Source: Solirubrobacterales bacterium (GTDB taxonomy: Bacteria; Actinomycetota; Thermoleophilia; Solirubrobacterales; Solirubrobacteraceae). Taken from it: a stretch of DNA of 64,000 nucleotides. The stretch spans positions 35,450-99,449 of the forward strand of contig JAOPZS010000134.1 of assembly GCA_025963965.1 (NCBI GenBank). Direction: 5' to 3'. Positions within the stretch are counted from its first letter, which is position 1. Every line of letters starts with the position of its first letter. Positions 1,611-54,214 of this stretch are shown here, one piece after another. The notes beneath the pieces are model-generated. The model did not search any database. It saw only the letters and a program-made list of their open reading frames with translations, and was not told the DNA's origin. The translations under genes were made by a program, and so were the position numbers.

Positions 1611-2831
1611 ATGTTGAGGGTCGCCGAGCAGTACTACGGCAGCGACACGGGACGCCAGCGGCGGGCCAACGAGGACTCGTTGATGGTTCGCTCGCCGCTG
1701 TTCGTGGTCGCAGACGGCATGGGCGGGGCGCAGGCCGGCGAGGTCGCCTCGCAGCTCGCTGCCGAGACCTTCCAGGCCGGGCTGCCCGGGTCGGGCGAGC
1801 CGGAGGCGGCTCTCGAGGAGCTCGCGCAGGAGGCCAACGCGCGCATCCACGAGCTCTCCCACGCGAACGCCGAGCAGGCCGGGATGGGCACGACGCTGAC
1901 CGCCGTGTACGTCGGTGAGCGCGAGGTGGCGATCGCCCACGTCGGCGACAGCCGCGCTTACTGCCTGCGCGACGGGGAGCTGCTGCGGCTGACCGACGAC
2001 CACTCGCTGGTCGACGAGCTGATGCGCCAGGGACGCCTCACGCCGGAGGAAGCCGTCGAGCATCCCCAGCGCTCGGTGATCACGCGCGCGCTCGGCATCG
2101 AAGGCACGGTCGACGTCGACACCCGCTCGTTCCGCGGGCTCGCCGGCGACGTCTACCTGATCTGCAGCGACGGCCTGACGACGATGATCTCCGAGGAGCG
2201 GATCGCCGAGCTGCTGCGTTCGACTCCCCGCCTGCGCGAGGCCGGCGAGGCGCTGATCGCGGCCGCCAACGAGGCCGGCGGCCGCGACAACATCACCGTC
2301 GTGCTGCTGCGCCTCGAGGAGGTCGGCGGCGACGGTGCCGTGGCCGAGCAGGCGACACTGACCGGCCTGCCGGCGGTCCGCCCCGGGGGCGCCGCGGCGC
2401 AGCCGGCCGAAGCGCCGTCCGGGCCGTCGACCGAGGCCTACACCGCACCGGCGACGGCGGCGCCGCGCCGACCGCGCACGGGCCCCGTCCGAGCCCCTGC
2501 AGCGCGACGCCGACCCCGCCTCCAGGCCCGGCGCGTCGGACTGCTCGCGGGGGTGCTCGCCGTGCTCGCGCTGATCGGCGGGGGCGCGTTCCTCGCGCTG
2601 CAGTCGGTGTACTTCATCGGCACGAACGAACGCGGCCTCGTGACGCTCTACCAGGGCGTTCCCCTCGAGCTCCCGGGGAACATCGCGCTCTACAGCAGCC
2701 AGTACGTCTCGGGCGTCGGCGCCTCGACGCTCAGCGCTCAGCGCCGCAGCACGCTGCTCGACCACACGCTGCGCTCGGAAGCGAAGGCCGCTTCGCTGAT
2801 CCGCAGCCTCGAACTCGACCAACTCGAATGA
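1611..2831 (+). CDS. pstP: PP2C-family Ser/Thr protein phosphatase with C-terminal TM and short extracytoplasmic tail
   Basis: Motifs RRANEDSLMV, VVADGMGGAQAGEVAS, AHVGDSRAY, DGLTTMI, GGRDNITVVL; TM LLAGVLAVLALIGGGAFLAL near the C-terminus. Confidence 0.9.
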   Translation: MLRVAEQYYGSDTGRQRRANEDSLMVRSPLFVVADGMGGAQAGEVASQLAAETFQAGLPGSGEPEAALEELAQEANARIHELSHANAEQAGMGTTLTAVYVGEREVAIAHVGDSRAYCLRDGELLRLTDDHSLVDELMRQGRLTPEEAVEHPQRSVITRALGIEGTVDVDTRSFRGLAGDVYLICSDGLTTMISEERIAELLRSTPRLREAGEALIAAANEAGGRDNITVVLLRLEEVGGDGAVAEQATLTGLPAVRPGGAAAQPAEAPSGPSTEAYTAPATAAPRRPRTGPVRAPAARRRPRLQARRVGLLAGVLAVLALIGGGAFLALQSVYFIGTNERGLVTLYQGVPLELPGNIALYSSQYVSGVGASTLSAQRRSTLLDHTLRSEAKAASLIRSLELDQLE

Positions 2832-2841
2832 GTGCCGCCCG

Positions 2842-4278
2842 GTGAACCGCCCGATCTTTCGCCTCTACGGCCTCGTGGTCGTGCTGTTCGCGCTGCTCGT
2901 CGGGTTCACCTCGCGCTGGACGATCTTCGAAGCGTCCTCGCTGCGCGAAAACAAGCTGAACCGCCGGGGGCTGCTCGAGCAGCAGCGCATCGCCCGCGGC
3001 CCGATCGTCGCCGCCGACGGCACGGTGCTGGCACGCAGCCATCGCGGCAGCGAAGGGATCTACGAACGGAGCTATCCGACCGGCAGCCTGTTCGCCAACA
3101 CCGTCGGCTACTACTTCACGAACCTCGGCAGCACCGGGATCGAGCGTTTCCGCAGCGCCTACCTGAACGGGCAGACCGACACCGGCGTGCAGGCGATCCT
3201 CGACCAGCTGCAGGGGCACAAACCGACGGGCGAGAAGGTCGTCACGACGCTCGATCCGAAGGCCCAGCGCGTGGCCGACGAAGCCCTCGCCGAACACAAG
3301 GGCGCCGTGGTCGCGATGGAACCTCGCAGCGGCGCCGTCACGGTGATGGCCTCCTCGCCCAGCTACGACCCGAACTCCCTGCGCTCGGCCAAGGCGTTCG
3401 AACAGCTCGCGCACGACACGCAGCGCGAGCCGCTCATCAACCGCGCCACCCAGTTCGGCTACGCGCCCGGGTCGACCTTCAAGGTCGTGACGGCGACCGC
3501 CGCGATCGACAGCGGCGCATTCACACCGCAGTCGACGGTCAACGGCCGCGACAACGTGCCGATCTCGGGCGTACCGCTGAAAAACGACAACAACGAGAGC
3601 TTCGGTGCGCTGTCGCTCGAACAGGGCCTCGCGAAATCGGTCAACACCGTCTACGCGCAGGTGGCAGAGCGTCTCGGCAAGGCCACGCTGGCGCGCTACA
3701 TGAGCCGCTTCGGCTTCGACCGCAAGCCGCAGCTCGACTACCCGGCAACGGAAATGTCGGCGAGCGGGGAGAGCGAAGGCGAAAAGATCGTCCCGCCGAC
3801 CAGCGAACGGGTCGACGTGGGGCGCATGGGGATCGGCCAGGACAAACTCGCCGTGACGCCGCTGCAGATGGCAGAGGTCGCCTCGGCGGTCGCCAACCAC
3901 GGCACCTTGATGGTCCCGCATCTGACCTCGCGAATCGTCAACGCCGAAGGGCAGACGACCGTGCGGATCGCGCCGCGCGTCCAGTCGAAGGTGATGAAGG
4001 GCTCCACGGCGGCCGCCGTGACGTCGATGATGGAAGCCGTCGTCAACGAAGGCACCGGTGTCTCGGCGCAGATCCCCGGCGTGCAGGTGGCCGGCAAGAC
4101 GGGCACCGCGGAGACGCAGATCGGCACGGCGATCAACAACGTCTGGTTCATCGCCTTCGCGCCTGCCCAGAACCCGCGCGTGGCGATCGCCGTGACCCTG
4201 AAGGGCGTGCCCGGGCAGGGCGCGTCGTTCGCCGCCCCCGTCGCACGACAGGTGATCGAACGGCTGCTCCATGATTGA
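2842..4278 (+). CDS. pbpA: Penicillin-binding protein, transpeptidase (PbpA-like)
   Basis: N-terminal TM; PBP motifs STFK (PGSTFKVVTATAAI), SVN (AKSVNTVYAQ), KTGTAE. Confidence 0.9.
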   Translation: MNRPIFRLYGLVVVLFALLVGFTSRWTIFEASSLRENKLNRRGLLEQQRIARGPIVAADGTVLARSHRGSEGIYERSYPTGSLFANTVGYYFTNLGSTGIERFRSAYLNGQTDTGVQAILDQLQGHKPTGEKVVTTLDPKAQRVADEALAEHKGAVVAMEPRSGAVTVMASSPSYDPNSLRSAKAFEQLAHDTQREPLINRATQFGYAPGSTFKVVTATAAIDSGAFTPQSTVNGRDNVPISGVPLKNDNNESFGALSLEQGLAKSVNTVYAQVAERLGKATLARYMSRFGFDRKPQLDYPATEMSASGESEGEKIVPPTSERVDVGRMGIGQDKLAVTPLQMAEVASAVANHGTLMVPHLTSRIVNAEGQTTVRIAPRVQSKVMKGSTAAAVTSMMEAVVNEGTGVSAQIPGVQVAGKTGTAETQIGTAINNVWFIAFAPAQNPRVAIAVTLKGVPGQGASFAAPVARQVIERLLHD

Positions 4279-6202
4279 TCCCGACACGATCATCGACGGG
4301 CGCTACCGCGTCCTCTCGCGCCTTGGCTCCGGCGGCATGGCCGAGGTGTATCTCGCCCATGATCAGCTGCTCGGCCGCGAGGTCGCCGTCAAGGTCCTTC
4401 ACCACCACTTCGCCGAAGACCAGGAGTTCGTCGAGCGCTTCAAGCGCGAGGCCTCGAGCGCCGCGGCGCTGTCGCACCCGAACATAGTCGGCATCTTCGA
4501 CCGCGGCGAGTGGAACGGGACGTACTACATCGCGATGGAGTACGTCGCCGGACGCTCGCTCAAGGCGATCGTCCGTGAAGCCGGGCCGCTCGACCCGGCG
4601 GTGGCGATCGACACGGTGATCCAGATCCTCCGCGCCGCACGCTTCGCCCACCGCCGTGGCGTGATCCACCGCGACCTGAAGCCCCACAACGTGATCCTCG
4701 ACGACGAGGGGCGGGCGCGCGTCACCGACTTCGGGATCGCCCGCGCCGGCGCGTCGGACATGACGCTGACCGGATCGATCATGGGCACCGCGCAGTACCT
4801 CTCCCCGGAGCAGGCGCAGGGCTACGCCGTGAGCGCCGCGTCGGACATCTACTCCGTCGGCGTGATCCTCTACGAGCTGCTGACCGGGGCCGTCCCGTTC
4901 GAGGGGGAGTCGGCCGTCGCGATCGCCTTCAAGCAGGTCTCTGCGACCCCCCGCCCGCCGAGCGAGCTGAACCCTGGGCTCAGCCCGTCGCTCGACGCGG
5001 TCGTGCTGCGGGCGCTCGCCAAGGACCCGATCGAGCGCTACGCCGACGACGACGAGCTGATCAACGCGCTGGAGGCCGAGCGCGCGACGCTCCCCGCCCA
5101 TGGCGCCCCCGTCGACGGCCACCGCTACGGGGCCGGCCCGGCTTCCTACGAGCCGCCGACCGGCGTCATGCTCGCCGCGCCCGCGGCGTACCTCGAGGAC
5201 TATCCGCCGCCCGAGGAGGAGGAGCGCCGCCGCAACAAACGGTTCCTGTGGTGGGGCCTCGCCGCGCTGGCGATCGCAGGCGCTGCGGTCGCCGCCGTGC
5301 TGCTGCTCTCGCCGGCCGGGAAAGTGACGGTGCCCGACGTCGCCGGGCTCAGCGAACAGGCGGCCAGCTCGAGATTGCGTCATGCCGGGCTCGAACCGGT
5401 TCCCTCGCTGCAGCCGAGCTCGACCGTGCCGAGCGGTCTCGTCATCAGCCAGAGCCCGGCCGCGGGGGCGAGGGTCGAAAAGGGCCGCAAGGTCGGCATC
5501 GTCGTCTCCGGCGGTCCCGCCAGCGCGCCGGTCGTCGACGTCGAAGGCCTGAGCGCCGGGGAAGCCGTGGCGAAGCTCCGAAAAGCCGGTTTCAAGCCAA
5601 GGACGACGAAGGAAACCAGCTCGACGGTCGCGGCCGGGAAGGTGATCGCGACGAACCCCACGGCCGGCACCGAGAAGCAGCTCGGCAGCCCTGTCGTCGT
5701 GATCGTCTCGAGCGGACCCGCCCCCGTGAAGGTCCCCGACGTGATCGGGCAGTCCCAGTCCGCGGCCGAAGGCACGCTGAGGAACGCCGGCCTGACCGTC
5801 GGCACGGTGGCCAAGCGCACCTCCTCCGCGCAGGCCCCCGGCACGGTGCTGGCACAGTCGCCGGCGACGGGAACGTCGGTCAAGGCCGAAAGCAAGGTCA
5901 ACCTCACCGTCGCCCAGGCGCCGAAGGAAATCGCCGTGCCCGACGTCGTCGGCCAGAGCCAGACACTCGCACTGGTCGCGCTCGGCCAGGCCGGCTTCAA
6001 GCCGAAGACGGCCTCCGTCCAGACGAACCAGGCCGCTCAGGTGGGCGTCGTGCTGCGCCAGAGTCCCGCCGCGGGCTCGAAAGCGCCGAAGGGCTCCGTC
6101 GTGACGATCACGGTCGGCGTGCTCGGCCCCGAAACGACGCCGACCCCGCCGGCGACCACGACGACCACCACACCGGCGCCACCGGCGGCCGCAGGTGGCT
6201 GA
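4271..6202 (+). CDS. pknB: PknB-like Ser/Thr protein kinase with extracytoplasmic PASTA repeats
   Basis: Kinase motifs GSGGMAEVYLA, HRDLKPHNV, DFGIARA; TM FLWWGLAALAIAGAAVAAVLLL; four PASTA-like repeats (VPDVAGLSEQAA..., VPDVIGQSQSAA..., VPDVVGQSQTLA...). Confidence 0.93.
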   Translation: MIDPDTIIDGRYRVLSRLGSGGMAEVYLAHDQLLGREVAVKVLHHHFAEDQEFVERFKREASSAAALSHPNIVGIFDRGEWNGTYYIAMEYVAGRSLKAIVREAGPLDPAVAIDTVIQILRAARFAHRRGVIHRDLKPHNVILDDEGRARVTDFGIARAGASDMTLTGSIMGTAQYLSPEQAQGYAVSAASDIYSVGVILYELLTGAVPFEGESAVAIAFKQVSATPRPPSELNPGLSPSLDAVVLRALAKDPIERYADDDELINALEAERATLPAHGAPVDGHRYGAGPASYEPPTGVMLAAPAAYLEDYPPPEEEERRRNKRFLWWGLAALAIAGAAVAAVLLLSPAGKVTVPDVAGLSEQAASSRLRHAGLEPVPSLQPSSTVPSGLVISQSPAAGARVEKGRKVGIVVSGGPASAPVVDVEGLSAGEAVAKLRKAGFKPRTTKETSSTVAAGKVIATNPTAGTEKQLGSPVVVIVSSGPAPVKVPDVIGQSQSAAEGTLRNAGLTVGTVAKRTSSAQAPGTVLAQSPATGTSVKAESKVNLTVAQAPKEIAVPDVVGQSQTLALVALGQAGFKPKTASVQTNQAAQVGVVLRQSPAAGSKAPKGSVVTITVGVLGPETTPTPPATTTTTTPAPPAAAGG

Positions 6203-7289: not shown

Positions 7290-8858
7290 TCACCTGAAAA
7301 GCGTGATGTCGGCGATCGTCGCCGACTGGCTGTGTGGGGGAAGCGTCGTCATCCACACCAGGTAGTAGCGGTGGCGCCCGCCGAGACGGGCCAGGCCGAT
7401 ACGTTCGCCGTCGCGGACATGGGAGCTGGCGCCGACCGGCCCTTTCCAGCCACGCGAGGCGAGCGACGCCGGGTCGCCGAACGGCAACGTGAGATCGACC
7501 TTGTCGGCGACGTAGACCTGCACGGCGAAGCCGGGCGTCGGCGTCTGGAGCTCGATGCCGCGTCCGACGACGCCGGGGGAGGCATCGAGGTACACGCCCA
7601 GGCCGGTGCCGCCCGCCTTGCGCAGGGTGCCTTCGTAGTAGCGCTCCGTGCTCCACGTCGTGCTCGGGTCGCTGTCGACGACATTGCTGATCAGGTCGCG
7701 GTTTTCGGGGCCGGTGCCGAACGGGTTGTAGCCGTGCGCGGAGGACTGCCCGAGCGGCACGGCGACGAGCCCGGCCTTCGAGCCGGCGCCGGGTGCCACG
7801 CCGGTGCCGCGGTGGGCGTTTTCGCTGGCGAGAAACCCGAAGATCACGACGATCGCCACGAGCAGGGCGAGCGAGGCGAGCCAGCGGGCCCGGTGGCGGG
7901 TCCGCCAGGGCAGCCGCCGCCGGGCACGGCCGCTCAGGCTGCGCAGCACCGTCGTCACCTCGCCGGTCGTCTGGCCGGTGCGGGAGGCCTCGATCGCCAG
8001 AACGTTTTCGAGGTCGGCGGTCATCGCCGCCGCGTCGGGGTAACGGTGGGCGAGGTCCTTGGCGACGGCGCGATCGACGACCGACGCGGTCGCTGCGGAA
8101 ATCTCCGGACGGCGCGCCTGCACGTCGGGCAGCTCCTCGCGGACGTGGCGCATCGCCACCGCAACCGGCGAGTCGCCGTGGAACGGGACGTCGCCGGTCA
8201 ACATCTCGTAGAGCACGATGCCGAGCGAGTACAGGTCCGACTGCGGCGTGACCGGCTGGCCGAGGGCCTGCTCCGGGGACACGTAGTCGGTCGTCCCGAG
8301 CACACGCCCGGCCATCGTCAGGCCCTCCTCGCTGAGCGAGCGGGCGATGCCGAAGTCGGTGATCTTCGCGCCCCCCTCGGGGTCGATCAGGATGTTGTGG
8401 GGCTTGACGTCGCGATGCACGATCTGGCACTCGTGAGCGGCGCCGAGGGCGCGGGCGATCTCGATTGCGTACGCGAGCGCCTGCGGGATCTCGAGCGGGC
8501 CGCCGCGCCGGATCACGCCCTTCAGCGTCTCGCCGTCGACGAATTCGAGGACGATGTACGGCGTCCCGGCGGCCCCGTCGTGGCCGTCCGCCACCCGCTC
8601 CTCCTCGGGCAGCGGCTCCTCGCCGGCGTCGATCACGGACACCACGTTCGGGTGGTTCAGCTGCGCGATCGAACGCGCCTCGCGGCGGAAGCGCTCGAGT
8701 TGGTCGGAGTCGCTTGCGATCTCCCGGTGCATCAGCTTGATCGCGACCGGCCGCTCGAGCACCGTGTCGAACGCCCTGTAGACGGTCGACATGCCGCCGC
8801 GGCCGATCACCGCGTCGAGCCTGTAGCGTCCGCCGATCAGGGTGCCAACAGCTGCCAT
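7290..8858 (-). CDS. Ser/Thr protein kinase with TM and extracytoplasmic discoidin-like C-terminal domain
   Basis: GRGGMSTVYRAFD, HRDVKPHNILID, DFGIARS; TM ASLALLVAIVVIFGFLA; beta-rich C-terminus YNPFGTGPENRD...DSDPSTTWST. Confidence 0.9.
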   Translation of the reverse strand: MAAVGTLIGGRYRLDAVIGRGGMSTVYRAFDTVLERPVAIKLMHREIASDSDQLERFRREARSIAQLNHPNVVSVIDAGEEPLPEEERVADGHDGAAGTPYIVLEFVDGETLKGVIRRGGPLEIPQALAYAIEIARALGAAHECQIVHRDVKPHNILIDPEGGAKITDFGIARSLSEEGLTMAGRVLGTTDYVSPEQALGQPVTPQSDLYSLGIVLYEMLTGDVPFHGDSPVAVAMRHVREELPDVQARRPEISAATASVVDRAVAKDLAHRYPDAAAMTADLENVLAIEASRTGQTTGEVTTVLRSLSGRARRRLPWRTRHRARWLASLALLVAIVVIFGFLASENAHRGTGVAPGAGSKAGLVAVPLGQSSAHGYNPFGTGPENRDLISNVVDSDPSTTWSTERYYEGTLRKAGGTGLGVYLDASPGVVGRGIELQTPTPGFAVQVYVADKVDLTLPFGDPASLASRGWKGPVGASSHVRDGERIGLARLGGRHRYYLVWMTTLPPHSQSATIADITLFR

Positions 8859-35961: not shown

Positions 35962-37047
35962 ATGGTGACCGGCGGCGGTACGACGATCGACGCTCCCAGC
36001 GGGCGTCCTTCGCCGCCGGAAGACGAGACGGCGCCGGCCGTGCGCCTGACCGGTGTGCGCAAGTCCTACGGGCCGGTCGTGGCGATCGAGGATCTCTCGA
36101 TGGAGGTCCGCCCGGGGGAGTTCTTCACGATGCTCGGCCCGTCCGGCTCGGGCAAGACCACGACGCTTCGCGTGATCGCCGGCTTCGAGCCCGCCGACAC
36201 CGGGCGCGTCGAGCTCCACGGCCTCGAGGTGACCGGCACCCCCCCGTATGAGCGGCCGGTGAACACGGTCTTCCAGGACTACGCGCTGTTCCCGCACATG
36301 AGCGTCCTCGACAACGTCGCCTACGGCCTGCGCGTGAAGGGGGTCGGCCGGCGCGAGCGGGCCGAGCAGGCGGCGGCGGCGCTGGCGATGGTGCGGCTAC
36401 CCGGCGTCGAGGGCCGCCGGCCCGCGCAGCTGTCCGGCGGCCAGCGCCAGCGCGTCGCGCTGGCTCGCGCGATCGTGAACCGCCCCCGTGTGCTGCTGCT
36501 CGACGAGCCGCTCGGGGCCCTCGACCTGAAGCTGCGCCAGGAGATGCAGCTCGAGCTGAAGGCGATCCAGCGCGAGCTGAGCGAGCGCATCACGTTCGTC
36601 TACGTCACCCACGACCAGGACGAGGCGCTGACGATGAGCGACCGCATCGCTGTCTTCTCCAATGGCCGCCTCGAGCAGGTGGGTACGCCGGGGGAGATCT
36701 ACGAGCGTCCCGTCAACGAGTTCGTCGCCGGCTTCGTCGGCACCTCCAACGTGCTCGAGCGCGACGGCAGGCGCGTGATGGTGCGTCCTGAGAAGATCCG
36801 GCTGCTGGCACCCGGCGAGGACGCGCCCGGCGCCGTCAGGGGCGTGGTGCGGGAGGTCGCCTATCTGGGCTCGGTCACGCGCTACGTCGTGGAGTCCGAG
36901 CGGGGCGAGAAGATCGTCGTGCTGCGACAGAACCTCGACACGTCCGCCGAGCGGGTCCTGCAGGAACGGGGTCGTGAGGTGCGCCTCGAGTGGCGTCCCG
37001 AGGACGCATCGGTGCTGGATCACAAACAACAGGAGGCGGAGGCATGA
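35962..37047 (+). CDS. potA: Spermidine/putrescine ABC transporter ATP-binding protein
   Basis: Walker A GPSGSGKTTTLRVIAGF, LSGGQRQRVALARAI, Walker B RVLLLDEPLGALD; C-terminal TOBE region; adjacent potD/B/C. Confidence 0.9.
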   Translation: MVTGGGTTIDAPSGRPSPPEDETAPAVRLTGVRKSYGPVVAIEDLSMEVRPGEFFTMLGPSGSGKTTTLRVIAGFEPADTGRVELHGLEVTGTPPYERPVNTVFQDYALFPHMSVLDNVAYGLRVKGVGRRERAEQAAAALAMVRLPGVEGRRPAQLSGGQRQRVALARAIVNRPRVLLLDEPLGALDLKLRQEMQLELKAIQRELSERITFVYVTHDQDEALTMSDRIAVFSNGRLEQVGTPGEIYERPVNEFVAGFVGTSNVLERDGRRVMVRPEKIRLLAPGEDAPGAVRGVVREVAYLGSVTRYVVESERGEKIVVLRQNLDTSAERVLQERGREVRLEWRPEDASVLDHKQQEAEA

Positions 37048-38210
37048 AGCTTGCGAAGGTGGACTGGGCGCTGGGGGCCGTGCTCGCGGTGATGATCCTG
37101 GGGGCGAGCGCCTGTGGCAGCTCGTCGTCGAGCAAATCGTCGGCGAGCAACCTGCCGGCGAAGGTCGGCGCGGGCGAGGGTCAGCTCAACCTCGTCGCCT
37201 GGGAAGGCTATACACAGCCCCAGTGGGTGAAGCCGTTCGAAAAGCAGAGCGGCTGTCAGGTCCACGCGAAGTACGCGGGCTCCTCCGATGAAATGGTCAC
37301 TCTGATGCGCCAGAACGGCGGCAACCAGTACGACATGGTGTCGGCCTCCGGAGATGCGAGCCTGCGCCTGATCGACGGTGGCGACGTCGCGCCGATGAAC
37401 GTTGCGCTCGTGCCCGAATGGAAGAACTTCATTCCGCAGCTGCAGTCGCCTTCGCACAACACGGTGAAGGGCGTCCACTACGGCATCTCGCTGCAGTGGG
37501 GCCCGAACACGCTTCTCTACAACACGAAGTCGGTGACTCCGGCACCGACCAGCTGGGCGGAGATCTACGGCACGAAGTACAAAGGCCAGGTCACGGTTCC
37601 GAACAACCCGATCCAGATCGCCGACGCCGCGCTGTACCTGTCGAAGACCGAACCGGCCCTCGGCATCTCAGACCCCTATGAGCTCACCGAACCGCAGCTG
37701 AACGCCGCGGTCAACCTGCTCAAAAAGCAGCGCCCGCTGATCAAGAAGTACTGGGCGCTGGCCTCCGATGAGATCGAACTGTTCAAGAACGGCGATGCCG
37801 TGATCGGCGCCGCGTGGCCCTACCAGTACTCGACGTTGATCGGCGATCACGTCCCCGTGCAGCAGATCATCCCGTCGCAGGGTGCGACCGGGTGGGCCGA
37901 CACGTGGATGCTCTCCGCGCACGCCAAGCACCCGAACTGCGCATACAAATGGACGAACTGGGTGTCGAGCCCGAAAGTACAGGCCGAGCAGGCGATCAGC
38001 TACGGAGAGACACCGGTCAACCGGAAGGCGTGCCCGCTGATGGAAACCATCCAGAAGGGCTCGTGCGAGGTCTACCACGCCAACGCGCCGGCGGCGTACT
38101 TCGACTCGATCAAGTTCTGGCGGACGCCCGTGGCCGCATGCGGCAACGGCCAGAGCAACTGCATGGACTACACGAGCTGGCAGAAGAAGTGGACAGAAGT
38201 AACCGGCTAG
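37044..38210 (+). CDS. potD: Polyamine-binding lipoprotein
   Basis: Lipobox LGASAC; LNLVAWEGYTQPQWVKPFEKQSGCQVHAKYAGSSDEMVTLMRQ...QYDMVSASGDASLRLIDGG. Confidence 0.9.
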   Translation: MKLAKVDWALGAVLAVMILGASACGSSSSSKSSASNLPAKVGAGEGQLNLVAWEGYTQPQWVKPFEKQSGCQVHAKYAGSSDEMVTLMRQNGGNQYDMVSASGDASLRLIDGGDVAPMNVALVPEWKNFIPQLQSPSHNTVKGVHYGISLQWGPNTLLYNTKSVTPAPTSWAEIYGTKYKGQVTVPNNPIQIADAALYLSKTEPALGISDPYELTEPQLNAAVNLLKKQRPLIKKYWALASDEIELFKNGDAVIGAAWPYQYSTLIGDHVPVQQIIPSQGATGWADTWMLSAHAKHPNCAYKWTNWVSSPKVQAEQAISYGETPVNRKACPLMETIQKGSCEVYHANAPAAYFDSIKFWRTPVAACGNGQSNCMDYTSWQKKWTEVTG

Positions 38211-42702: not shown

Positions 42703-43923
42703 ATGGCCTACGTCCCCGCCCCGGAGATCCTCGAGCGCTATGCCTCGGTGCTCGTCGAGTTCGCACTCGGCGGCGGCGAGGGCATCAAGGCCGGGGACGT
42801 CGTGCGCGTCAGCGCACCGGAGAGCGCCAAGCCGCTCTACCTCGAGCTGTGCAGGGCCGTGTGGCGCGCTCAGGGCAACGTCATCGGCGGCTACCACCCG
42901 GACGAGGAACAACGGGGCGGCGGATCGAAGGACTTCTTCGAGCTCGCCTCCGACGCGCAGCTCGCGCATTTCCCGGCGCGCTACATGCGCGGGCTGATCG
43001 ACGAGATGGATCATCAGGTCTCGGTCATAACCGATGCCGACCCGCACGCCCTGGAGCAGGTCGACCCTGCGCGGATCATGCGCCGCGGCGAGGCTCTGCG
43101 CACGATGATGGACTGGCGCGGGGAGAAGGAGAACGAGGGTCGCTTCAGCTGGACGCTCGGCCTGTACGGCACCGAGGCGATGGCCGCGGAGGCGGAGATC
43201 AGCCTCGAGCAGTACTGGCAGCAGATCATCCATGCGTGCTTCCTCGACGAGGAGGACCCGATCGCTCGCTGGCGGGAGGTGGGCCGGCGCCTGGAGCAGA
43301 CGCGCGAACGCCTCGACGCGCTCGAGATCGAACGGGTTCACGTGCAGGGGGAGGACGTGGACCTGTGGGTCACGCTCGGCGAGAGCCGCCGCTGGCTGGG
43401 CGGCCGCGGGCGCAACATCCCGAGCTTCGAGCTGTTCACCAGCCCCGACTGGCATGGCACGGAAGGCTGGATCCGCTTCAACCAGCCGCTGTACCGCTAC
43501 GGCAACCTCGTCAAGGGCATCAGCCTCTCCTTCGCGGACGGTCGCGTCACGAAGGCGAGCGCCGAGCAGAACGAGGCGGTCCTGAAGGAGATGATCGCCA
43601 CCGACGGCGCCGACCGCGTCGGGGAGTTCTCGCTCACCGACAAACGCTTCTCGCGGATCACGCGCTTCATGGCCCAGACGCTCTACGACGAGAACGTCGG
43701 CGGCCCGTTCGGAAACACCCACATCGCGCTTGGACGTGCCTATCAGGACGCCTACACGGGAGACCCGGCGGGAGTCGCGCCCGAGGAGTGGCAGCGGCTC
43801 GGCTTCAACGACTCGAGCGTGCACACCGACATAGTCTCCACGACCGACCGGGTCGTGACGGCGCAGCTGCGCGGTGGCGAGGAGCGCGTCATCTACCGCG
43901 ACGGGGAGTTCCAGCTGGACTGA
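42703..43923 (+). CDS. M29-family aminopeptidase
   Basis: Aminopeptidase T-like pattern GIKAGDVVRVSAPESAKPLYLELCRAVWRAQGN; NIPSFELFTSPDWHGTEGWIRFNQPLYRYGNLVKGISL; GGPFGNTHIALGRAYQDAY. Confidence 0.87.
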   Translation: MAYVPAPEILERYASVLVEFALGGGEGIKAGDVVRVSAPESAKPLYLELCRAVWRAQGNVIGGYHPDEEQRGGGSKDFFELASDAQLAHFPARYMRGLIDEMDHQVSVITDADPHALEQVDPARIMRRGEALRTMMDWRGEKENEGRFSWTLGLYGTEAMAAEAEISLEQYWQQIIHACFLDEEDPIARWREVGRRLEQTRERLDALEIERVHVQGEDVDLWVTLGESRRWLGGRGRNIPSFELFTSPDWHGTEGWIRFNQPLYRYGNLVKGISLSFADGRVTKASAEQNEAVLKEMIATDGADRVGEFSLTDKRFSRITRFMAQTLYDENVGGPFGNTHIALGRAYQDAYTGDPAGVAPEEWQRLGFNDSSVHTDIVSTTDRVVTAQLRGGEERVIYRDGEFQLD

Positions 43924-44106
43924 GGCGGCAGCCGCGCCGGGCGGCTGGGACGGCCGAGCGGCCGGCCCCCGGGGACGCTGCCCCGTGGTATGTTCCGGCT
44001 CGATCAGAGGGAGGCCGCTCGGCGGGTGTGCGACGGCGATGGTCGACCGTCGCGAGCGCGATAACTCGGGCCTTCCTTGGAATGCGAAAGCAAGGAGATC
44101 CAAGGG

Positions 44107-44841
44107 ATGAGACGGACATCGATTGCGGTCGCTCTCGCGGCGGCCCTGTTTGCGCTGGTGGTGCTCGCCTCACCGGCCCTCGCAGTCAAAGAAAAACCGG
44201 TCTTCGGGAAGTTCAAGGCGTCGACGGCGGGCACCGTGCGTGGCATCGGCGAAGCCGGCGAAATGACGCTCGGTCCCTACAAGTTCGAAGAATGCGAAAA
44301 GGAACTTCACTCCGTGGGCACGGTCGTGATGGGCGAATCGGAAACCTTCTTCCAGGAAGTTCGGTTCTCCCACTGCGAAACGACGCGCAATGTCGGCGGC
44401 GGCCTCGAAGAAGCAATCGACGCGACGTTCACGCTGGGGATGGAATTCCACTCCAACGGCTCGCTCAAACTCGGGCCCTCGAGTGTCACGTTCGGCGCCA
44501 CCCACAGCCTCTGTGAAGTGACGATCCCGCCGCAATGGGTCCCGGCCGTGGCCGAAACGAAGGGCGAAGACAAACTCTTCGAAGACGCTACGTACTCCAC
44601 CGAAAAGGAAAAACTGGAAGGTGGCCCGGCCAAAAAATTCGGTGAATTCCGCGAACGCCTGGACATCGAATGGGAACTCAAAGGCATCGTCACAACGGTC
44701 AAACTGACGCCGGAATGCAAATACAAGGGCTCGCACATCAACGGCGCCGGCGAAGCCGAATTCTCCGGTGGCAAAATGGAAGGCGAACTCGAAGAAGTCA
44801 CGCTCAACAACGGCAACCTGAGCTTCATCCCGCCGGTCTGA
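44107..44841 (+). CDS. Secreted protein of unknown function
   Basis: Signal peptide [26 protein letters not shown]; Glu/Lys-rich beta-like mature part; every Glu codon is GAA. Confidence 0.75.
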
Positions 44842-44962: not shown

Positions 44963-46939
44963 GTGGAGCCTGCTGTGACGGCGAGCAAGACTTCTCAGCG
45001 CTTTCGCGACCGGACCGAGGCCGGGCAACGGCTGGCCGAGCGGCTGCCGTCCTATGCGGGACGCCGCGACGTCGTCGTGCTGGGGCTGCCGCGAGGCGGC
45101 GTGCCGGTGGCGTTCGAGGTGGCACGGTCGCTCGATGCGCCGCTGGACGTGTTCCTCGTGCGAAAGCTCGGCGTTCCGGGTCATGAGGAACTCGCGCTGG
45201 GCGCAATCGCCTCGGGCGGCGTGCGTGTGCTCAACGAGCGGCTGATCGCGGCCCTCGACATTCCCCCGGAGGTGCTCGAAGCGATCGACGCGAGGGAGCG
45301 CCGCGAGCTCGAGCGCCGCGAGCGCGCCTACCGTGGCCGCCGTCCGCCGCCGGACATCGCCGGGAGGACTGTGATCGTCGTCGATGACGGCCTCGCGACC
45401 GGCTCGACGATGCTCGCGGCGATCGAGGCGCTGCGGGCCGAGGAGCCCGCGAGCGTCCTCGCCGCAGTTCCCGTCGCCGATCCCGACGTGTGCGAGCTGG
45501 TGCGCTCCGCCGCCGACGACGCTGTGTGCCTGAGGACCCCGCAGCCGCTCGGTGCCGTGGGCCTGTACTACGAGGACTTCTCCCAGACGACCGATGAGGA
45601 GGTCCGCGAGCTGCTCGGCGCGGCCCGGCCGCCGCCGCTCGCCCGCGCCGTCGAGGGCGCCCGCGAGCTGACCGGCGGCGACGCGGACTACGTCGCGCTG
45701 CTCGAGCGCGCCGCGGCGGCGCGCTTCGTGCTGATCGGCGAGGCCTCGCATGGCACGCACGAGTTCTATCGCGACCGTGCCGAGATCACCAAGCGCCTGA
45801 TCGCCGAGCAGTCGATCGGCGCGGTCGCCGTCGAGGCCGACTGGCCCGACGCCTACAGGGTCAACCGCTTCGTCCGCGGCGAGGCCTCCGACCGGGAGGC
45901 CGAGCAGGCGCTCTCCGACTTCGAGCGGTTCCCCGGCTGGATGTGGCGCAACACCGTCGTCGCCGAGTTCGTGCGGTGGCTGCGCGACTGGAACGGGCGC
46001 CTGCCCGCCGGCCGGCCGAAGGTCGGCTTCTACGGCCTCGATCTATACAGCCTGCACCGCTCGATGGACGCCGTGATCGACTACCTCGACCACGTCGATC
46101 CCGGTGCGGCACGGCGAGCACGGGAGCGCTACGCGTGCTTCGACCACTTCGGGCGCGATCCGCAGGTCTACGCCTACGAGGCAGGCATCGGCGGTGCCGA
46201 GTCATGCGAGCAGCAGGCCGTCGAGCAGCTCGTCGAGCTGCAGCGCATGGCCGCGGAGCAGGACGCCTCGGGCGCCGCCCGCGCCCCCGACGACGAGCTG
46301 TTCTTCGCCGAGCAGAATGCTCGTCTGGCGCTGAGCGCCGAGCGGTACTACCGGGCGATGTTCCGTGGCGGCGTCGAGAGCTGGAACCTCCGCGATCGGC
46401 ACATGGCTGAGACTCTCGAGGCACTCGCCGCCCACCTGCAGGCCCGCCAGGGGACGCCGAGGATCGCCGTGTGGGAGCACAACTCCCATCTCGGTGACAA
46501 CCGTGCGACCGAGCTCGGCCAGACCGGCCAGCTGAACGTCGGCCAGCTCGTCCGCGAGAAGCACGCCGGGGAGACGCTGCTCGTCGGCTTCTCGACCTAC
46601 AGCGGCACCGTCACGGCCGCCTCGGACTGGGGTGGCGCGGCGGAGCGCAAGCGCGTTCGCCCGGCGCTGCCGGGGAGCTGGGAGGAGCTCTTCCACGAGC
46701 AGGCGCCGGGTGCCGCCCTGATCGACACGGCTCGGCTTCACGGCCGGCGGCTCGAGCGCGCGATCGGCGTCATCTACCGACCCGAGACCGAGCGCATCTC
46801 GCACTACTTCCACGCGCGCCTCGCCGAGCAGTTCGACGCCGTCATCCACTTCGACGAGACGCACGCGCTCGAGCCGCTCGAGCCGAGCGAGCTGTGGCAG
46901 CAGGGCGAGGTGCCCGAGACCTACCCGTTCGGGGTGTGA
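44963..46939 (+). CDS. Phosphoribosyltransferase-erythromycin esterase-like fusion protein
   Basis: PRTase half: [61 protein letters not shown]; EreA-like half: [71 protein letters not shown]. Confidence 0.88.
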
Positions 46940-47131
46940 CGCCCGGGGTCCGTCTCGCGCTCGGCCCCGATCCCGGCGCGCGCGTGGCCGAAGCGGCGAG
47001 CGAAGCCGCATGACGATTCAGAACGGGCGTGCGCGGGTATAGACGTGGCATTCCAGCCGGCCCGACCAGGGAGCGGGCCGGCAAATGATCGAGATTCCGC
47101 GCGTGCGTGCGGAACGGGGGAGAGTCGCCAC

Positions 47132-49537
47132 GTGCTGAATCGAGCGAGCGTAGATCGTCGGGTCGTGAGCCGAGGGGGAGAGAGCCATCGCAAGCCACGC
47201 CGTTCACGGGCGCGGATCAGCGTCGTCTCGACCTTCGTGGCGCTGGCTGTTTCGCTGGTGGCGGCCACGAGCGCGTCCGCGTTCACCACCCAGGGGAGCG
47301 TGAAGCAGGTGGACGTCACCGGCTTGGCCCCGAACGCACAGGCGTCTCTGCTGAGCTCCAAGGGCACAACCGTCTACACGCAGAACGCCGACTCGCTCGG
47401 AGGACTGCTGTTCCGGAACGTGGCTCCGGGCGCCGGCTACCGGGTTCGCACCTCCACGGGCGAAACGTCTGGGAAGATCACCGTGCACTCCGATGCCGCG
47501 GCGCCTTGGGACTCGAGCGTCTACAACCAGTCGATCCCAGACAACGGATACACGTATCTGACGACGCGGGACGGCACGCAGCTCGCCATCACCGTCCACC
47601 CGCCGAGCAGCCCGGCGGGCGAGCCCGGCGTCCCGTCGAGCTTCCACTTTCCGACCTTCCCGCAGCCCGGCGTGCCGACGCCGAGCTACGCGCCGCCGTA
47701 TCCGACGCTGATCGAGTACTCGGGCTACGGGTATGCGGACCCGGCCGGCCCGGAAAGCGGCATCGCCGTGCTCGCCAACCTGATGGGCTTCGCCGTGGTC
47801 GATGTGAACATGCGCGGCACCGGCTGCTCGGGCGGCGCCTTCGACTTCTTCGAGTCGCTGCAGAACCTCGACGGCTACGACGTGATCGAGACGATCGCCC
47901 AGCAGCCGTGGGTCCTCAACCACAAGGTGGGCATGCTCGGCATCTCCTACGGGGGGATCAGCCAGCTGTTCACGGCGCAGCTCCGGCCACCCGACCTCGC
48001 AGCGATCGCGCCTCTGTCGGTGATCGACGCGACGGCGACGACCCTCTACCCAGGCGGCATCCGCAACGACGGTTTCGCCGTCGCATGGGCCGAACAGCGC
48101 CAGCAGAACGCCGAACCGGCAAGTCCCGGCCACGGGCAGGCGTGGGCGACCAAGCAGATCGAAGAAGGCGATCAGACGTGTGCGGCCAACCAGGCGCTGC
48201 ATGGCGAGGCCGCGAACCTGATGGAAAAGATCGAAGCGAACTCGACCTACAACCCGTCTGTGGCCGATTCGCTGGACCCGGTCACGTTCGTCAAGAAGAT
48301 CAATGTGCCGACGTTCATGGCCTGCCAGTGGGAGGACGAGCAGACCGGCGGCCACTGCGCCGATCTGGCCCAGCACTTCACCGGCACGAGCCGCAAGTGG
48401 TTCACGTTCACCAACGGCGCTCACATCGACTCGCTCGATCCAGCGACGTACAACCGCTTCTACGACTTCTTGGAGCTGTACGTCGCCCATCAGGCGCCGA
48501 TCGTCAACCAGGCGGTGCCCCGCGCCGCCGCCCCGGTCGTCTACCAATCCGCGATGGGGCTCCCCCAGAGCGAGCTCGTCACGCTTCCACCGGATCCGAT
48601 CCAGTTGCAGCCGACCTACGAATCGGCCCTGGCCGCGTTCGAAGCGCTGCCGCCGATCCGGGTGCTGTTCGACAACGGCGCCGGGACCTCGCCCACGGGC
48701 AGCACGACCGCCGGCGATCCCTACCCCGGGTTCGAACAGTCGTTCTCCAAGTTCCCGATCCCCGGCACGAAGGCCAAGTCCTGGTACTTCGGCCCGGGGG
48801 GCACGCTGAACGAGCAGCAGCCGACGGCTGAAGGGGTCGACTCCTACACCTCGGATGCGAATGCCCTGCCGCTGACGGATTACTCGAACAACACAGGCGG
48901 TGGCGGCCTCTGGGGCAACGCGTCCCAGTGGGAATACAACTGGGCGCAGGCTCCGGCAGGCTCCGCCGTGTCCTACGTGTCGGCTCCGCTCACGAGTGAC
49001 ACCACCGCGATCGGCGGCGGCGCAGTCCATCTCTGGGTGAAGTCCTCAACTCCGGACGTCGACCTGCAGGCGACCGTCAGCGAGGTGCGTCCGGACGGCA
49101 ACGAGACGTTCGTGCAGAACGGCTGGATTCGGGCGAGCGAGCGCAAGCTGGCGACCAGCTCGAAGAACATCTTCAAGCAGAAGCCCACGCTGCTCCAACC
49201 GATTCCGACGCTGCTCGCATCCGACGCGGAACCGATGCCGACGAACGAATTCGTCCCGGTCGTCCTACCGCTCTACTTCCAGGGTCACGCCTACCGCACG
49301 GGGTCGCGGATCAGGGTCACGATCGCCGCGCCCAACGGGACACAGCCGATCTGGTCGTTCGGGCACACAGAGCCCGGCACGACCGCGGCGGAGTCGATCG
49401 CGTTCTCGCCCAGCATGCCGTCGAGCCTGGTCCTCCCGATCGTGCCCGGCGTCGGCGTGCCGACAGCCCTGCCCCCATGCCCGAGCCTGCGCAACGAGCC
49501 CTGCCGGCCCTACCAGGCAATCGTCAACGGCGGCTGA
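47132..49537 (+). CDS. Secreted S15/CocE-NonD family hydrolase (X-Pro dipeptidyl-peptidase-like)
   Basis: Signal-like segment FVALAVSLVAATSASAF; nucleophile motif HKVGMLGISYGGISQLF; VNMRGTGCSGGAFDFFESLQNLDGYDVIETIAQQPWV; start among several GTGs uncertain. Confidence 0.82.
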   Translation: MLNRASVDRRVVSRGGESHRKPRRSRARISVVSTFVALAVSLVAATSASAFTTQGSVKQVDVTGLAPNAQASLLSSKGTTVYTQNADSLGGLLFRNVAPGAGYRVRTSTGETSGKITVHSDAAAPWDSSVYNQSIPDNGYTYLTTRDGTQLAITVHPPSSPAGEPGVPSSFHFPTFPQPGVPTPSYAPPYPTLIEYSGYGYADPAGPESGIAVLANLMGFAVVDVNMRGTGCSGGAFDFFESLQNLDGYDVIETIAQQPWVLNHKVGMLGISYGGISQLFTAQLRPPDLAAIAPLSVIDATATTLYPGGIRNDGFAVAWAEQRQQNAEPASPGHGQAWATKQIEEGDQTCAANQALHGEAANLMEKIEANSTYNPSVADSLDPVTFVKKINVPTFMACQWEDEQTGGHCADLAQHFTGTSRKWFTFTNGAHIDSLDPATYNRFYDFLELYVAHQAPIVNQAVPRAAAPVVYQSAMGLPQSELVTLPPDPIQLQPTYESALAAFEALPPIRVLFDNGAGTSPTGSTTAGDPYPGFEQSFSKFPIPGTKAKSWYFGPGGTLNEQQPTAEGVDSYTSDANALPLTDYSNNTGGGGLWGNASQWEYNWAQAPAGSAVSYVSAPLTSDTTAIGGGAVHLWVKSSTPDVDLQATVSEVRPDGNETFVQNGWIRASERKLATSSKNIFKQKPTLLQPIPTLLASDAEPMPTNEFVPVVLPLYFQGHAYRTGSRIRVTIAAPNGTQPIWSFGHTEPGTTAAESIAFSPSMPSSLVLPIVPGVGVPTALPPCPSLRNEPCRPYQAIVNGG

Positions 49538-51001: not shown

Positions 51002-54000
51002 ATGTCGAAGCTGCGTAGCTTGTCGCTGCTTGCGGGCACAGTGCTCTGCATGCTGGTGGTGCCGTCGGTCGCCGGCGCCGCGATCACGTCGGTGTTCGGA
51101 GGCACGGTCGCCTGCACGGAACAAGTCGGGGCGAACGCCGGGCAGCGCTGGTGCGGCAACGCGGCGAACACGACCGTCCCGGTCTGGGACGGAACACCTA
51201 TCGATGTTTCGGTGGCGTTCCCGCCGGCGACGGGCGCGGACAACAACTATCCCGTCGTCGGCATGTACCACGGCTGGGGCGGCAGCAAGATCACGCCGTC
51301 GAGTGCCGGCGCGCAGCGCTGGCTGAAACTCGGCTACGCCGTCTTCTCGATCACCGACCGCGGCTGGGGCTCATCGTGCGGGAAACCGTCCTCCCCCGCG
51401 AACTCACTCAAGCCGGCCCCATGCGAACGCGGCTACATCCACCTGCTGAGCAGGCGCTACGAGGTGCGCGACGTGCAGACGCTCCTCGGCAAACTTGCCG
51501 ACGAAACCGTCATCAACCCCCAGCAGATCGGCGCCAACGGCGGCAGCTACGGCGGTGGCATGTCGCTCGAGCTCGGCTCGCTGAAGGACCGGGTCGAACT
51601 GCAGAACGGCGAACTGATCCCATGGGCGAGCCCCGAAGGCAAGCCGATGAAGATCGCCGCGACGGCACCTGAATTCCCGTGGAGTGACATCGCGCAGGCG
51701 CTGCAGCCCAACGGCAGCACGCTCGACTACGTCGAAAACGCCCCCTACAGCGGGATGCTCGGCAACCACCGCTACGGGATCGAAAAGGACAACTGGAACG
51801 CCGGCCTGTTCCTGACGGGCGCCTCGTCCGGCTACTACGCCCCGACAAGCGCCAACGATCCGGAAGCCAACATCCAGAACTGGCACACGTTCAACGGCAC
51901 CGGCGGCCCGTACGACGGCCAGGCGCTGGCGATCCAGCAGGAAGAACAGCTGCCGAACCACAGCGCCTACTACACGAACCTCGCAGAGCCTCCAGCTCCG
52001 GCGATCATGGAGAACGGCTGGAACGACGACCTGTTCCCGGTCGATGAAACCGTCAAGTACTACAACAAGGTCCGCGCGGCCTACCCGAACCAGCCGATGC
52101 AGATGTTCGACTGGGATCTCGGGCACAACCCGCGCTCGGCAACGGCGCTGTCGAGCAGCGACTCGGCAAAGTACGTCGCCGCGCAGAACGCCTGGTTCTC
52201 CTACTACATCAAGGGCGAAGGCTCAGAACCGGCGAACGCCAAGGGTGGCGCGACCGCGATCACGAGCGCTTGCCCGCAGAGCGCAGGCGCCTCCGGGACC
52301 GAGTACAAAGCCGCCAACTGGGCGAGTCTCGCTCCGGGTGAGCTCCGCTACACCAGCGCCGCCGAACAGACCGTCCAGGCTCCCGGCACGGCGACGGCCA
52401 GCGCGTTCACCAGCGGCACGGTCTGCACGACGCAGAACGCGGCCGCGAACCCGTCGGCCGCCGAGTACAAATTCACCGAAGCGCCCGCCGGCGGCTTCAC
52501 ACTGGTCGGGTCGACGACGGTGATCGGCGAAATCTCGACGCCGGGCGCCAATGACCAGCTGATCGCCCGCCTCTACGACGAAAACGTGGTTGCCGGCACC
52601 GAGCAGCTGATCGGCCGCCAGGCCTACCGTCCGCTGAACCCGGGCGAAGGCTTCACCAAGCAGGTCTTCCAGCTGCATCCGCAGGCCTGGAAGGTGGAAG
52701 CGGGGCACGCACTCAAGCTCGAGCTGCTGGTCGCGGACTCGACGTCGTGCACGGGCCTGCTTCCGGCTTGCTATGTGCGCCCGTCCTCCTCGCCGCACTC
52801 GATCGGGGTCAAGAACCTCGAGCTGCGAGTGCCCGCGGCGGACGCTCCGGGCAGCGCCGAAGGAAACGTCAAAACCCCAGCGGCTCCGTACCTGCCGCCG
52901 GGGTACACGCTGGCGCGCAACGAGCGCACCACCGCGCCCGGCCAGCCGCACCTGACGAGCGGCTCGACGCCGAACAAGGACGGCGTGTACACGCTCGGCT
53001 GGTCGGCCTCCGAGGCGGCCACGGCACTCAGCTACACGCTCGAACACAAGAACGCGAGCGGCGGCTGGAGCATCGTCGCGGGCGGGCTGGCGAGCGCCGA
53101 ATACGCGTTCACCGCCGGCACTCCCGAGGCCGAAGGCACTTGGGAATACCGGGTCACGGCGAGCGACGAAGGGCCAGCGTCGGAACCGTCCGAAGCATCG
53201 GCCCCGGTCGTTGTCGACGAGTCCCTGCCCAATGCGCCGATCGTGACCGCTGACCGCCTGCCCGACTACTCCGGCGCGGGCGGTTGGTATTCGAACTCGG
53301 TCACGGTCTCCTTCGCGGGCAACGGCGACCCGGCGCTGTCGGACGGCAGCTCCGGTAGCGGCGTCGACCCCGGCTCCGTGCCGGCGCCGCAGACGTTCTC
53401 CACCGACGGTGCTCACACCGCCGCGGGGACCGTCACCGACAACGCCGGCAACGTCTCGGCGCCCGGTGAACTGGCGGTGCAGGTGGACGCCAGCCCGCCG
53501 AACGTGGAAGTCGGCTGCCCGGCCAGCGCGGTCTACGGCAGCGCCGCGACCGCGACGATCACGGCCTCCGACGGACAGTCGGGCCTGGCCGTGGACCCGA
53601 GCGGCACGGTGCCGATCGACACGAGCACCGTCGGCTCGAGGACGACCTCGGCTACCGCCGTCGACAACGTCGGCCACGGCGCCGAAGCGTCCTGTGTGAC
53701 GACCGTCAAATACAGCCAGGTGATCAGCGGCTCGGTGAAAGGCAAACTGACGATCGGCAAAGGCCAGGGCGTCGAGATCGGTCCCGGCGCGAAAGTCAGC
53801 GGCGCGGTGAAGGTCAAGCCGGGCGGCGCGATCGACGTCGAGGGCGCGACCCTCGCCGGCGGTCTGAGCACGAGCAAAGCGACCGTCGTACGGGTCTGCG
53901 GCGCGAGCGTCTCGGGTCCGACGAAGCTAGTCGCGACGACCGGCCCCGTGACGCTGGGACGCTCCGGCGGCGGATGTCTCGCCTCCTCGTTCTACGGCAA

Positions 54001-54214
54001 CGTCGTCGTCAAATCGACGAGCGGCGCCGTCGTGATCGAAGGGACCTCGCTGGTCGAAGAAAACATGTTCCACGGGTCGCTGAACGTCAGCTCGAACACC
54101 GGCGGGACGACCGTGCGCAACAACTCGGTCAACGGCTCGCTGACGGTCAAGGGCAACAGCGGCACGGTGATCGACACGCCGAACAGCGTCGAAGGAAAGT
54201 CGAAGGTCCAGTAG
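51002..54214 (+). CDS. Large secreted S15/CocE-like hydrolase with Ig-like and beta-helix-like C-terminal regions
   Basis: Signal peptide LSLLAGTVLCMLVVPSVAGA; GANGGSYGGGMSLELG nucleophile region; C-terminus ISGSVKGKLTIGKGQGVEIGPGAKVSGAVKVKPGGAIDVEGATLAGG... resembles right-handed beta-helix/bactofilin repeats. Confidence 0.78.
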   Translation: MSKLRSLSLLAGTVLCMLVVPSVAGAAITSVFGGTVACTEQVGANAGQRWCGNAANTTVPVWDGTPIDVSVAFPPATGADNNYPVVGMYHGWGGSKITPSSAGAQRWLKLGYAVFSITDRGWGSSCGKPSSPANSLKPAPCERGYIHLLSRRYEVRDVQTLLGKLADETVINPQQIGANGGSYGGGMSLELGSLKDRVELQNGELIPWASPEGKPMKIAATAPEFPWSDIAQALQPNGSTLDYVENAPYSGMLGNHRYGIEKDNWNAGLFLTGASSGYYAPTSANDPEANIQNWHTFNGTGGPYDGQALAIQQEEQLPNHSAYYTNLAEPPAPAIMENGWNDDLFPVDETVKYYNKVRAAYPNQPMQMFDWDLGHNPRSATALSSSDSAKYVAAQNAWFSYYIKGEGSEPANAKGGATAITSACPQSAGASGTEYKAANWASLAPGELRYTSAAEQTVQAPGTATASAFTSGTVCTTQNAAANPSAAEYKFTEAPAGGFTLVGSTTVIGEISTPGANDQLIARLYDENVVAGTEQLIGRQAYRPLNPGEGFTKQVFQLHPQAWKVEAGHALKLELLVADSTSCTGLLPACYVRPSSSPHSIGVKNLELRVPAADAPGSAEGNVKTPAAPYLPPGYTLARNERTTAPGQPHLTSGSTPNKDGVYTLGWSASEAATALSYTLEHKNASGGWSIVAGGLASAEYAFTAGTPEAEGTWEYRVTASDEGPASEPSEASAPVVVDESLPNAPIVTADRLPDYSGAGGWYSNSVTVSFAGNGDPALSDGSSGSGVDPGSVPAPQTFSTDGAHTAAGTVTDNAGNVSAPGELAVQVDASPPNVEVGCPASAVYGSAATATITASDGQSGLAVDPSGTVPIDTSTVGSRTTSATAVDNVGHGAEASCVTTVKYSQVISGSVKGKLTIGKGQGVEIGPGAKVSGAVKVKPGGAIDVEGATLAGGLSTSKATVVRVCGASVSGPTKLVATTGPVTLGRSGGGCLASSFYGNVVVKSTSGAVVIEGTSLVEENMFHGSLNVSSNTGGTTVRNNSVNGSLTVKGNSGTVIDTPNSVEGKSKVQ

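What the first reader, a model, noticed from the sequence alone, without database searches (positions are those of the whole stretch)
44107..44841. Secreted protein with essentially 100% GAA glutamate codons in a high-GC genome
All of the roughly 32 Glu codons I read are GAA and none is GAG, and Lys is mostly AAA. Leu, Gly, Thr and Val codons remain strongly GC-ending. The flanking cytoplasmic genes (42703-43923 and 44963-46939) use GAG nearly exclusively. This is the extreme case of the export-linked codon pattern, and the protein itself has no function I can recognise.
Basis: seen in the sequence. Interest (0 to 1): 0.75.

Follow-up and report, generated by a model that had tools for sequence, protein, structure and literature searches.

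The report
Glutamate codons that mark exported segments
In one genus of soil bacteria, protein parts that end up outside the cell membrane spell the amino acid glutamate mostly as GAA while parts that stay inside spell it GAG, the spelling flips within single genes where the protein crosses the membrane, and this secreted protein is the extreme case (32 of 32 GAA).

Summary
In detail: 32 GAA and 0 GAG at 44107-44841, against 4/36 and 2/63 in the flanking genes. It is the extreme of a genus-wide pattern. Pooled over six genomes of the genus, GAA is 11% of Glu codons in cytoplasmic and about 68% in exported proteins; Lys AAA goes from 10% to about 34%; other amino acids, Gln included, hardly change. 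The switch happens inside single genes at the membrane. In PASTA kinases of eight close relatives Glu is 18 GAA/163 GAG inside and 67/30 outside (p = 3e-24). Sensor proteins show it in the reverse order, without a ribosome-tunnel lag. It is codon-specific, independent of neighbours, helix propensity and conservation, and above the ~30% neutral expectation. Thirteen other actinobacterial genomes and E. coli K-12 lack it. Seven family members (26-47% identical, synonymous sites saturated) total 214 GAA/9 GAG, so recent transfer is excluded. A lead: the genus's only detected GAA-reading tRNA has, in the one genome read, an extra hairpin in its D-loop. The pattern is solid; the mechanism (probably residue-level selection during decoding) is inferred. 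The protein is genus-restricted, secreted, probably beta-rich, role unknown.

The parts
44107..44841 (+). Secreted protein, 244 aa, 32 GAA/0 GAG; the finding itself
44107..44184 (+). Sec signal peptide [26 protein letters not shown] (residues 1-26)
   Evidence: sequence; cleavage site inferred from the A-L-A motif
44092..44097 (+). AAGGAG, likely ribosome-binding site, 9 nt before the ATG
   Evidence: sequence
42703..43923 (+). Cytoplasmic M29 aminopeptidase, 4 GAA/36 GAG (flanking control)
44963..46939 (+). Phosphoribosyltransferase-erythromycin esterase fusion, 2 GAA/63 GAG (flanking control)
4271..5254 (+). PASTA kinase, cytoplasmic kinase part: 2 GAA/23 GAG
5312..6199 (+). Same gene, extracytoplasmic PASTA part: 10 GAA/1 GAG
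1611..2828 (+). PP2C phosphatase with one TM segment: cytoplasmic part 3/27, outer part 4/1
7293..8858 (-). Second membrane-anchored kinase: cytoplasmic part 2/23, outer part 4/2
2842..4275 (+). Penicillin-binding protein (extracytoplasmic): 17 GAA/9 GAG; orthologues in other genera use GAG (1/12, 2/12, 8/21)
37044..38207 (+). Lipoprotein: 9 GAA/7 GAG
47045..49537 (+). Secreted S15-family peptidase/hydrolase: about 15 GAA/16-17 GAG
51002..54211 (+). Large secreted S15/S9-like protein: 36 GAA/16 GAG

Best explanation
SHOWN: in this genus of Solirubrobacterales the choice between the two Glu codons follows where the residue ends up. Segments that stay in the cytoplasm use GAG (~90%); segments outside the membrane use GAA (~68%; 96% in this protein family). 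The switch is immediate at the membrane, in both orders, inside single genes. Lys follows more weakly and nothing else changes. GAA lies above the non-coding expectation outside and below it inside, so both sides look selected for Glu; exported Lys merely reaches the neutral level. INFERRED: the selection acts during decoding at the level of the individual residue, because gene-level, mRNA-motif, mutational and ribosome-position causes are excluded or disfavoured. The most likely form is a trade-off between two Glu tRNAs: tRNA-Glu(CUC), reading GAG, is preferred for cytoplasmic and conserved residues; the single detected UUC tRNA, which carries an extra hairpin in its D-loop in the genome read, reads GAA with a different speed or fidelity that suits, or is tolerated in, chain segments that fold outside the cell. 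The window gene is a secreted, probably beta-rich envelope or extracellular protein with all its Glu residues on the 'outside' setting.
For: Own genome before hand cleaning: GAA 0.097 in vs 0.622 out, all other codon families nearly equal. Pooled genus: Cramer V 0.489 Glu, 0.276 Lys, below 0.075 for the rest; gene AUC 0.967. PASTA kinases of eight relatives 18/163 in vs 67/30 out, p = 3e-24. HAMP sensor proteins, outside part first: 38/74 out vs 44/377 in, p = 1e-8, change within 20 codons of the TM segment. Outer vs inner loops 0.35 vs 0.13. Independent of next base, uniform along the chain, no out-of-frame GAG avoidance; independent of helix propensity, outgroup homology and conservation. 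Neutral expectation 0.30. At Glu sites shared with other genera: exported 42% GAA vs 16% in outgroup, cytoplasmic 9% vs 14%. GAG is commoner than GAA at conserved Glu sites. Odd tRNA(UUC).
Against: No measured link between the tRNA and the codon pattern; the hairpin was read in one genome only. HAMP sensor domains and outer loops reach only about 34%, and several sensors show none. Lys does not switch in PASTA kinases. Gln has the same UUG/CUG tRNA pair and does not switch, so a general UUN-versus-CUN rule fails. Topology labels come from hydrophobicity rules, and one list of false positives was removed by hand (uncleaned result agrees).
Confidence: 0.55

Rival explanations
1. Relaxed selection: cytoplasmic residues need accurate decoding (GAG, AAG), exported residues tolerate errors, so their codons drift to mutational equilibrium.
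For: Exported Lys AAA (0.34) equals the non-coding value (0.34). GAG sites are more conserved than GAA sites in both compartments.
Against: Exported Glu (0.68) is more than twice the neutral 0.30, and this family reaches 0.96. Gln, Asp and the others show no relaxation. Poorly conserved cytoplasmic genes keep GAG.
Confidence: 0.2
2. Pacing: codons are chosen to set ribosome speed while a segment passes the Sec translocon.
For: Exported segments only; Glu and Lys are charged residues. A speed difference between GAA and GAG is known for E. coli (general knowledge, not tested here).
Against: No 30-40 codon lag at either kind of boundary. Cytoplasmic domains translated after membrane insertion return to GAG at once. 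Other codon families with slow and fast members do not change.
Confidence: 0.15
3. Avoidance of an RNA or DNA motif (for example Shine-Dalgarno-like GAGG/AAGG) in exported genes.
For: GAA is somewhat more frequent before G than before C in both compartments.
Against: Out-of-frame GAG (NNG|AGN, GGA|G) is not depleted in exported genes, and the shift holds for every next base. CAG, GGG and AGG are unchanged or nearly so.
Confidence: 0.03
4. Recent transfer of exported genes from a GAA-biased donor.
For: This gene family was found only in this genus.
Against: Other codons fully match the host. Vertically inherited kinases and the penicillin-binding protein carry the pattern in this genus only. 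The family is old and its synonymous sites are saturated.
Confidence: 0.02

Closest known systems
Rare or non-optimal codons in signal sequences and gene ends of secretory genes (e.g. PMC2833160)
   Same: Synonymous usage linked to secretion in bacteria.
   Different: Here the mature exported segment is affected along its whole length, the N-terminal side of the signal peptide is not (0.19, n = 16), and essentially one amino acid carries it.
Codon adaptation differing between secretory and cytosolic proteins in eukaryotes (PMC3879104)
   Same: Codon usage correlates with destination.
   Different: That work compares whole-protein averages and clusters of low-tRNA codons; here the change is at Glu (and Lys) only and flips inside genes at the membrane.
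Secreted versus non-secreted proteomes of Actinobacteria (PMC3729583)
   Same: Same phylum, compares codon bias with secretion.
   Different: It relates codon adaptation index to Ka/Ks; the passages on codons that I read report no inside/outside codon switch.
Codon-biased translation through tRNA wobble modification (e.g. yeast Trm9, PMC4689569)
   Same: Singles out GAA (and AAA) by tRNA chemistry.
   Different: Acts on whole transcripts; cannot by itself explain a switch within one mRNA.
tRNAs with non-canonical structures (review PMC7609411)
   Same: tRNA departing from the usual cloverleaf proportions.
   Different: The passages found by term search describe no inserted hairpin in the D-loop of an elongator tRNA; the review was not read in full.

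Membership tests
Signal-sequence rare-codon effect | Unusual codons concentrated in the signal peptide or first codons | tested here: not met
   GAA share 0.19 (n = 16) before the hydrophobic core, 0.82 right after it, then 0.64-0.80 to the end
Expression-level codon bias | Gene-wide shift, seen in highly expressed cytoplasmic genes | tested here: not met
   Switch inside genes; FtsZ 0/24, a GroEL-like fragment 1/19 and an RNA-polymerase-like gene (assigned by motif) 3/53 use GAG; ribosomal protein L2 was not found in the assembly
Recently transferred gene | Foreign codon usage across amino acids | tested here: not met
   Only Glu and Lys differ
Mutational or strand bias | All A/G-ending codons or all frames affected | tested here: not met
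   Gln and fourfold codons unchanged; out-of-frame GAG unaffected
Codon reassignment of GAA | GAA aligned with another conserved residue in relatives | tested here: not met
   Conserved cytoplasmic columns: 13 of 14 Glu; exported columns too few, 5 of 13 Glu
Known protein family for the 44107-44841 product | Match to Pfam or NCBIfam above cut-off | tested here: not met
   Only DUF4179 at 17.1 bits (cut-off 30.1) over residues 2-37, mostly the signal peptide; NCBIfam none

The most novel reading that the evidence does not exclude
The genus has a synonymous inside/outside code at Glu codons served by two Glu tRNAs of different behaviour: GAA is read only by a structurally new tRNA (UUC anticodon, extra hairpin in the D-loop) with its own speed or fidelity, perhaps allowing some misincorporation, and selection reserves this decoding for protein parts outside the membrane.
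Probability: 0.3. Interest if true: 0.95.

Novelty: new variant of a known kind. Interest (0 to 1): 0.8.

Why it matters
Codon usage is normally explained for whole genes (expression, GC content, transfer) or short regions (gene starts, signal peptides). Here one amino acid's codons report membrane topology residue by residue, with a large effect, in both orders, inside single genes. That makes an open question testable: what a synonymous choice does to a residue depending on where it ends up. In practice, GAA content would predict secreted proteins and topology in this mostly uncultured soil lineage (gene-level AUC 0.97).

Tried and rejected
Recent transfer, expression level, gene age or conservation, helix versus strand context, neighbouring codons, RNA motif, mutation bias, translocon lag and codon reassignment were each tested and rejected or weakened. 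An early link with low helix propensity vanished once misclassified cytosolic proteins were removed. Loss of tRNA-Glu(CUC) or tRNA-Lys(CUU), which would have explained Glu and Lys but not Gln, is wrong: both are present. Origin of the UUC tRNA from tRNA-Lys is not supported by similarity. My first paired PASTA test picked wrong frames and was redone. A first tRNA pattern was one base short. A viral-contig scan for the tRNA gave no answer. Paper searches found no equivalent, but only open-access papers are held.

Full report
OBSERVATION. The ORF 44107-44841 has 32 GAA and no GAG, 11 AAA/7 AAG, and otherwise mostly GC-ending codons; the neighbours are 4/36 and 2/63. It begins with a Sec signal peptide behind an AAGGAG site. 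The window lies in a 3.03 Mb MAG of 147 contigs. The named relatives of one of its kinases are Solirubrobacterales/Solirubrobacteraceae MAGs, at least one from palsa by its isolate name (lineage).

GENOME-WIDE PATTERN. I sampled 543 kb of the own genome, called genes with a script that ignores the Glu/Lys/Gln synonymous choice, and labelled proteins by simple hydrophobicity rules. Before any hand cleaning GAA was 0.097 in 266 cytoplasmic and 0.622 in 54 exported genes, and AAA 0.094 and 0.344; Gln, Asp, Asn, His, Cys, Tyr, Phe and nearly all other codon families agree within a few percent. The 'exported' genes with low GAA were largely N-anchored cytosolic proteins or mislabelled enzymes (they look like TatA, RmuC and carbamoyl-phosphate synthase), and the 'cytoplasmic' genes with high GAA mostly look like exported proteins with truncated starts. 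Pooled over six genomes of the genus: Cramer V 0.489 for Glu, 0.276 for Lys, below 0.075 for the rest; gene-level AUC 0.967; 68% (gene bootstrap 63-73%) versus 11%.

WITHIN GENES. The window's PASTA kinase has 2 GAA/23 GAG in the kinase part and 10/1 in the PASTA part. In eight close relatives the counts are 18/163 inside and 67/30 outside, p = 3e-24; Lys does not switch there. In HAMP-domain sensor proteins, where the outside part comes first, the counts are 38/74 outside and 44/377 inside (p = 1e-8), with Lys 16/32 against 1/33; the change falls within 20 codons of the second TM segment. Polytopic proteins have 0.35 in outer and 0.13 in inner loops. A switch within one gene excludes gene-level causes. 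The lack of a lag, and the GAG use of cytoplasmic domains made after membrane insertion, argue against ribosome position as the cause.

CONTROLS. The shift holds for every following base, is uniform along the chain, and out-of-frame GAG is not avoided. It does not depend on helix propensity or outgroup homology, nor on conservation within the genus. Non-coding DNA predicts GAA 0.30, AAA 0.34, CAA 0.32: exported Glu is above this, cytoplasmic Glu below, exported Lys at it. At Glu sites shared with other genera, exported segments of the genus have 42% GAA and the outgroups 16%; cytoplasmic sites have 9% and 14%. GAA still means Glu: 13 of 14 conserved cytoplasmic columns, though only 5 of 13 exported ones, a small sample.

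DISTRIBUTION. Four other genomes of the genus with enough data show the contrast (0.48-0.57 outside versus 0.08-0.16 inside). Four genomes of other genera in the family show none, and two pooled genomes of genus g24 a mild one (0.38 versus 0.26). Nine further actinobacterial genomes with testable exported genes show none, several on few codons, nor does E. coli K-12. PASTA kinases of other genera of the family do not switch clearly, although the most GC-rich ones could hardly show it.

THE GENE FAMILY. A paralogue (L002) and homologues in five other genomes of the genus were found, and none outside the genus among 201 genomes of the order. The GAA/GAG counts are 32/0, 36/1, 30/1, 30/2, 25/4, 32/0 and 29/1. 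Pairwise identity is 26-47%, codon agreement at identical Ala residues is 0.32 (chance 0.33), and Glu columns hold 71 GAA/5 GAG. So GAA is maintained while other synonymous sites are saturated. The first four aligned members share three invariant cysteines, and the protein is probably beta-rich (low-confidence model). I take the family for envelope or extracellular proteins; their role is not known.

tRNA LEAD. In genome G074, 43 tRNA genes were identified; both Lys, both Gln and Glu(CUC) are present. The only UUC tRNA was miscalled Ala(AGC): it is 96-97 nt, a normal cloverleaf with a 31-nt D-loop holding a 7-bp hairpin (Rfam tRNA 66.6 bits). Its 3' half occurs in all eleven genomes of the genus searched, in up to three copies, and differs from the UUC tRNA seen in other genera. 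Its body resembles Arg- and Met-type tRNAs more than Glu(CUC). Whether the hairpin is present throughout the genus could not be read, and whether it has anything to do with the codon pattern is unknown; one trait and one tRNA in one genus is a single coincidence in evolutionary terms.

VERDICT. My confidence in the pattern is about 0.95, in residue-level selection during decoding about 0.55, and in the tRNA being part of the cause about 0.3.

Noticed in passing
L208:1501-1596 (-), genome G074: tRNA with UUC anticodon, 31-nt D-loop containing a 7-bp hairpin (GGUUCUC-CUCG-GGGAGCC); ARAGORN calls it tRNA-Ala(agc). Its 3' half is in all 11 genomes of the genus searched, up to 3 copies.
   Followed up: partly
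L170-L188: HAMP sensor proteins of the genus are uneven: some outer domains have about half or more GAA (e.g. L188 6/1, L172 6/3), others none (L174 0/6, L179 0/7, L184 0/7). Unexplained.
   Followed up: no
L010:6244-7746 and L043:11663-12328: Two proteins with abrupt GAG-to-GAA change (1/17 to 20/0 and 0/2 to 11/0) at a hydrophobic segment; likely unrecognised inside-to-outside membrane proteins.
   Followed up: no
L007:4350-5126, L130:2699-3466: Proteins that look like PspA/IM30 (by sequence, from memory) have intermediate GAA (9/14, 10/14) although they would be cytoplasmic and membrane-associated.
   Followed up: no
L002 and L003: The paralogue on contig C80 and its G014 homologue both sit next to a PAS-GGDEF-like gene (conserved neighbourhood), unlike the window copy.
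   Followed up: no
window 44963-46939: Fusion of a phosphoribosyltransferase domain with an erythromycin-esterase-family domain.
   Followed up: no
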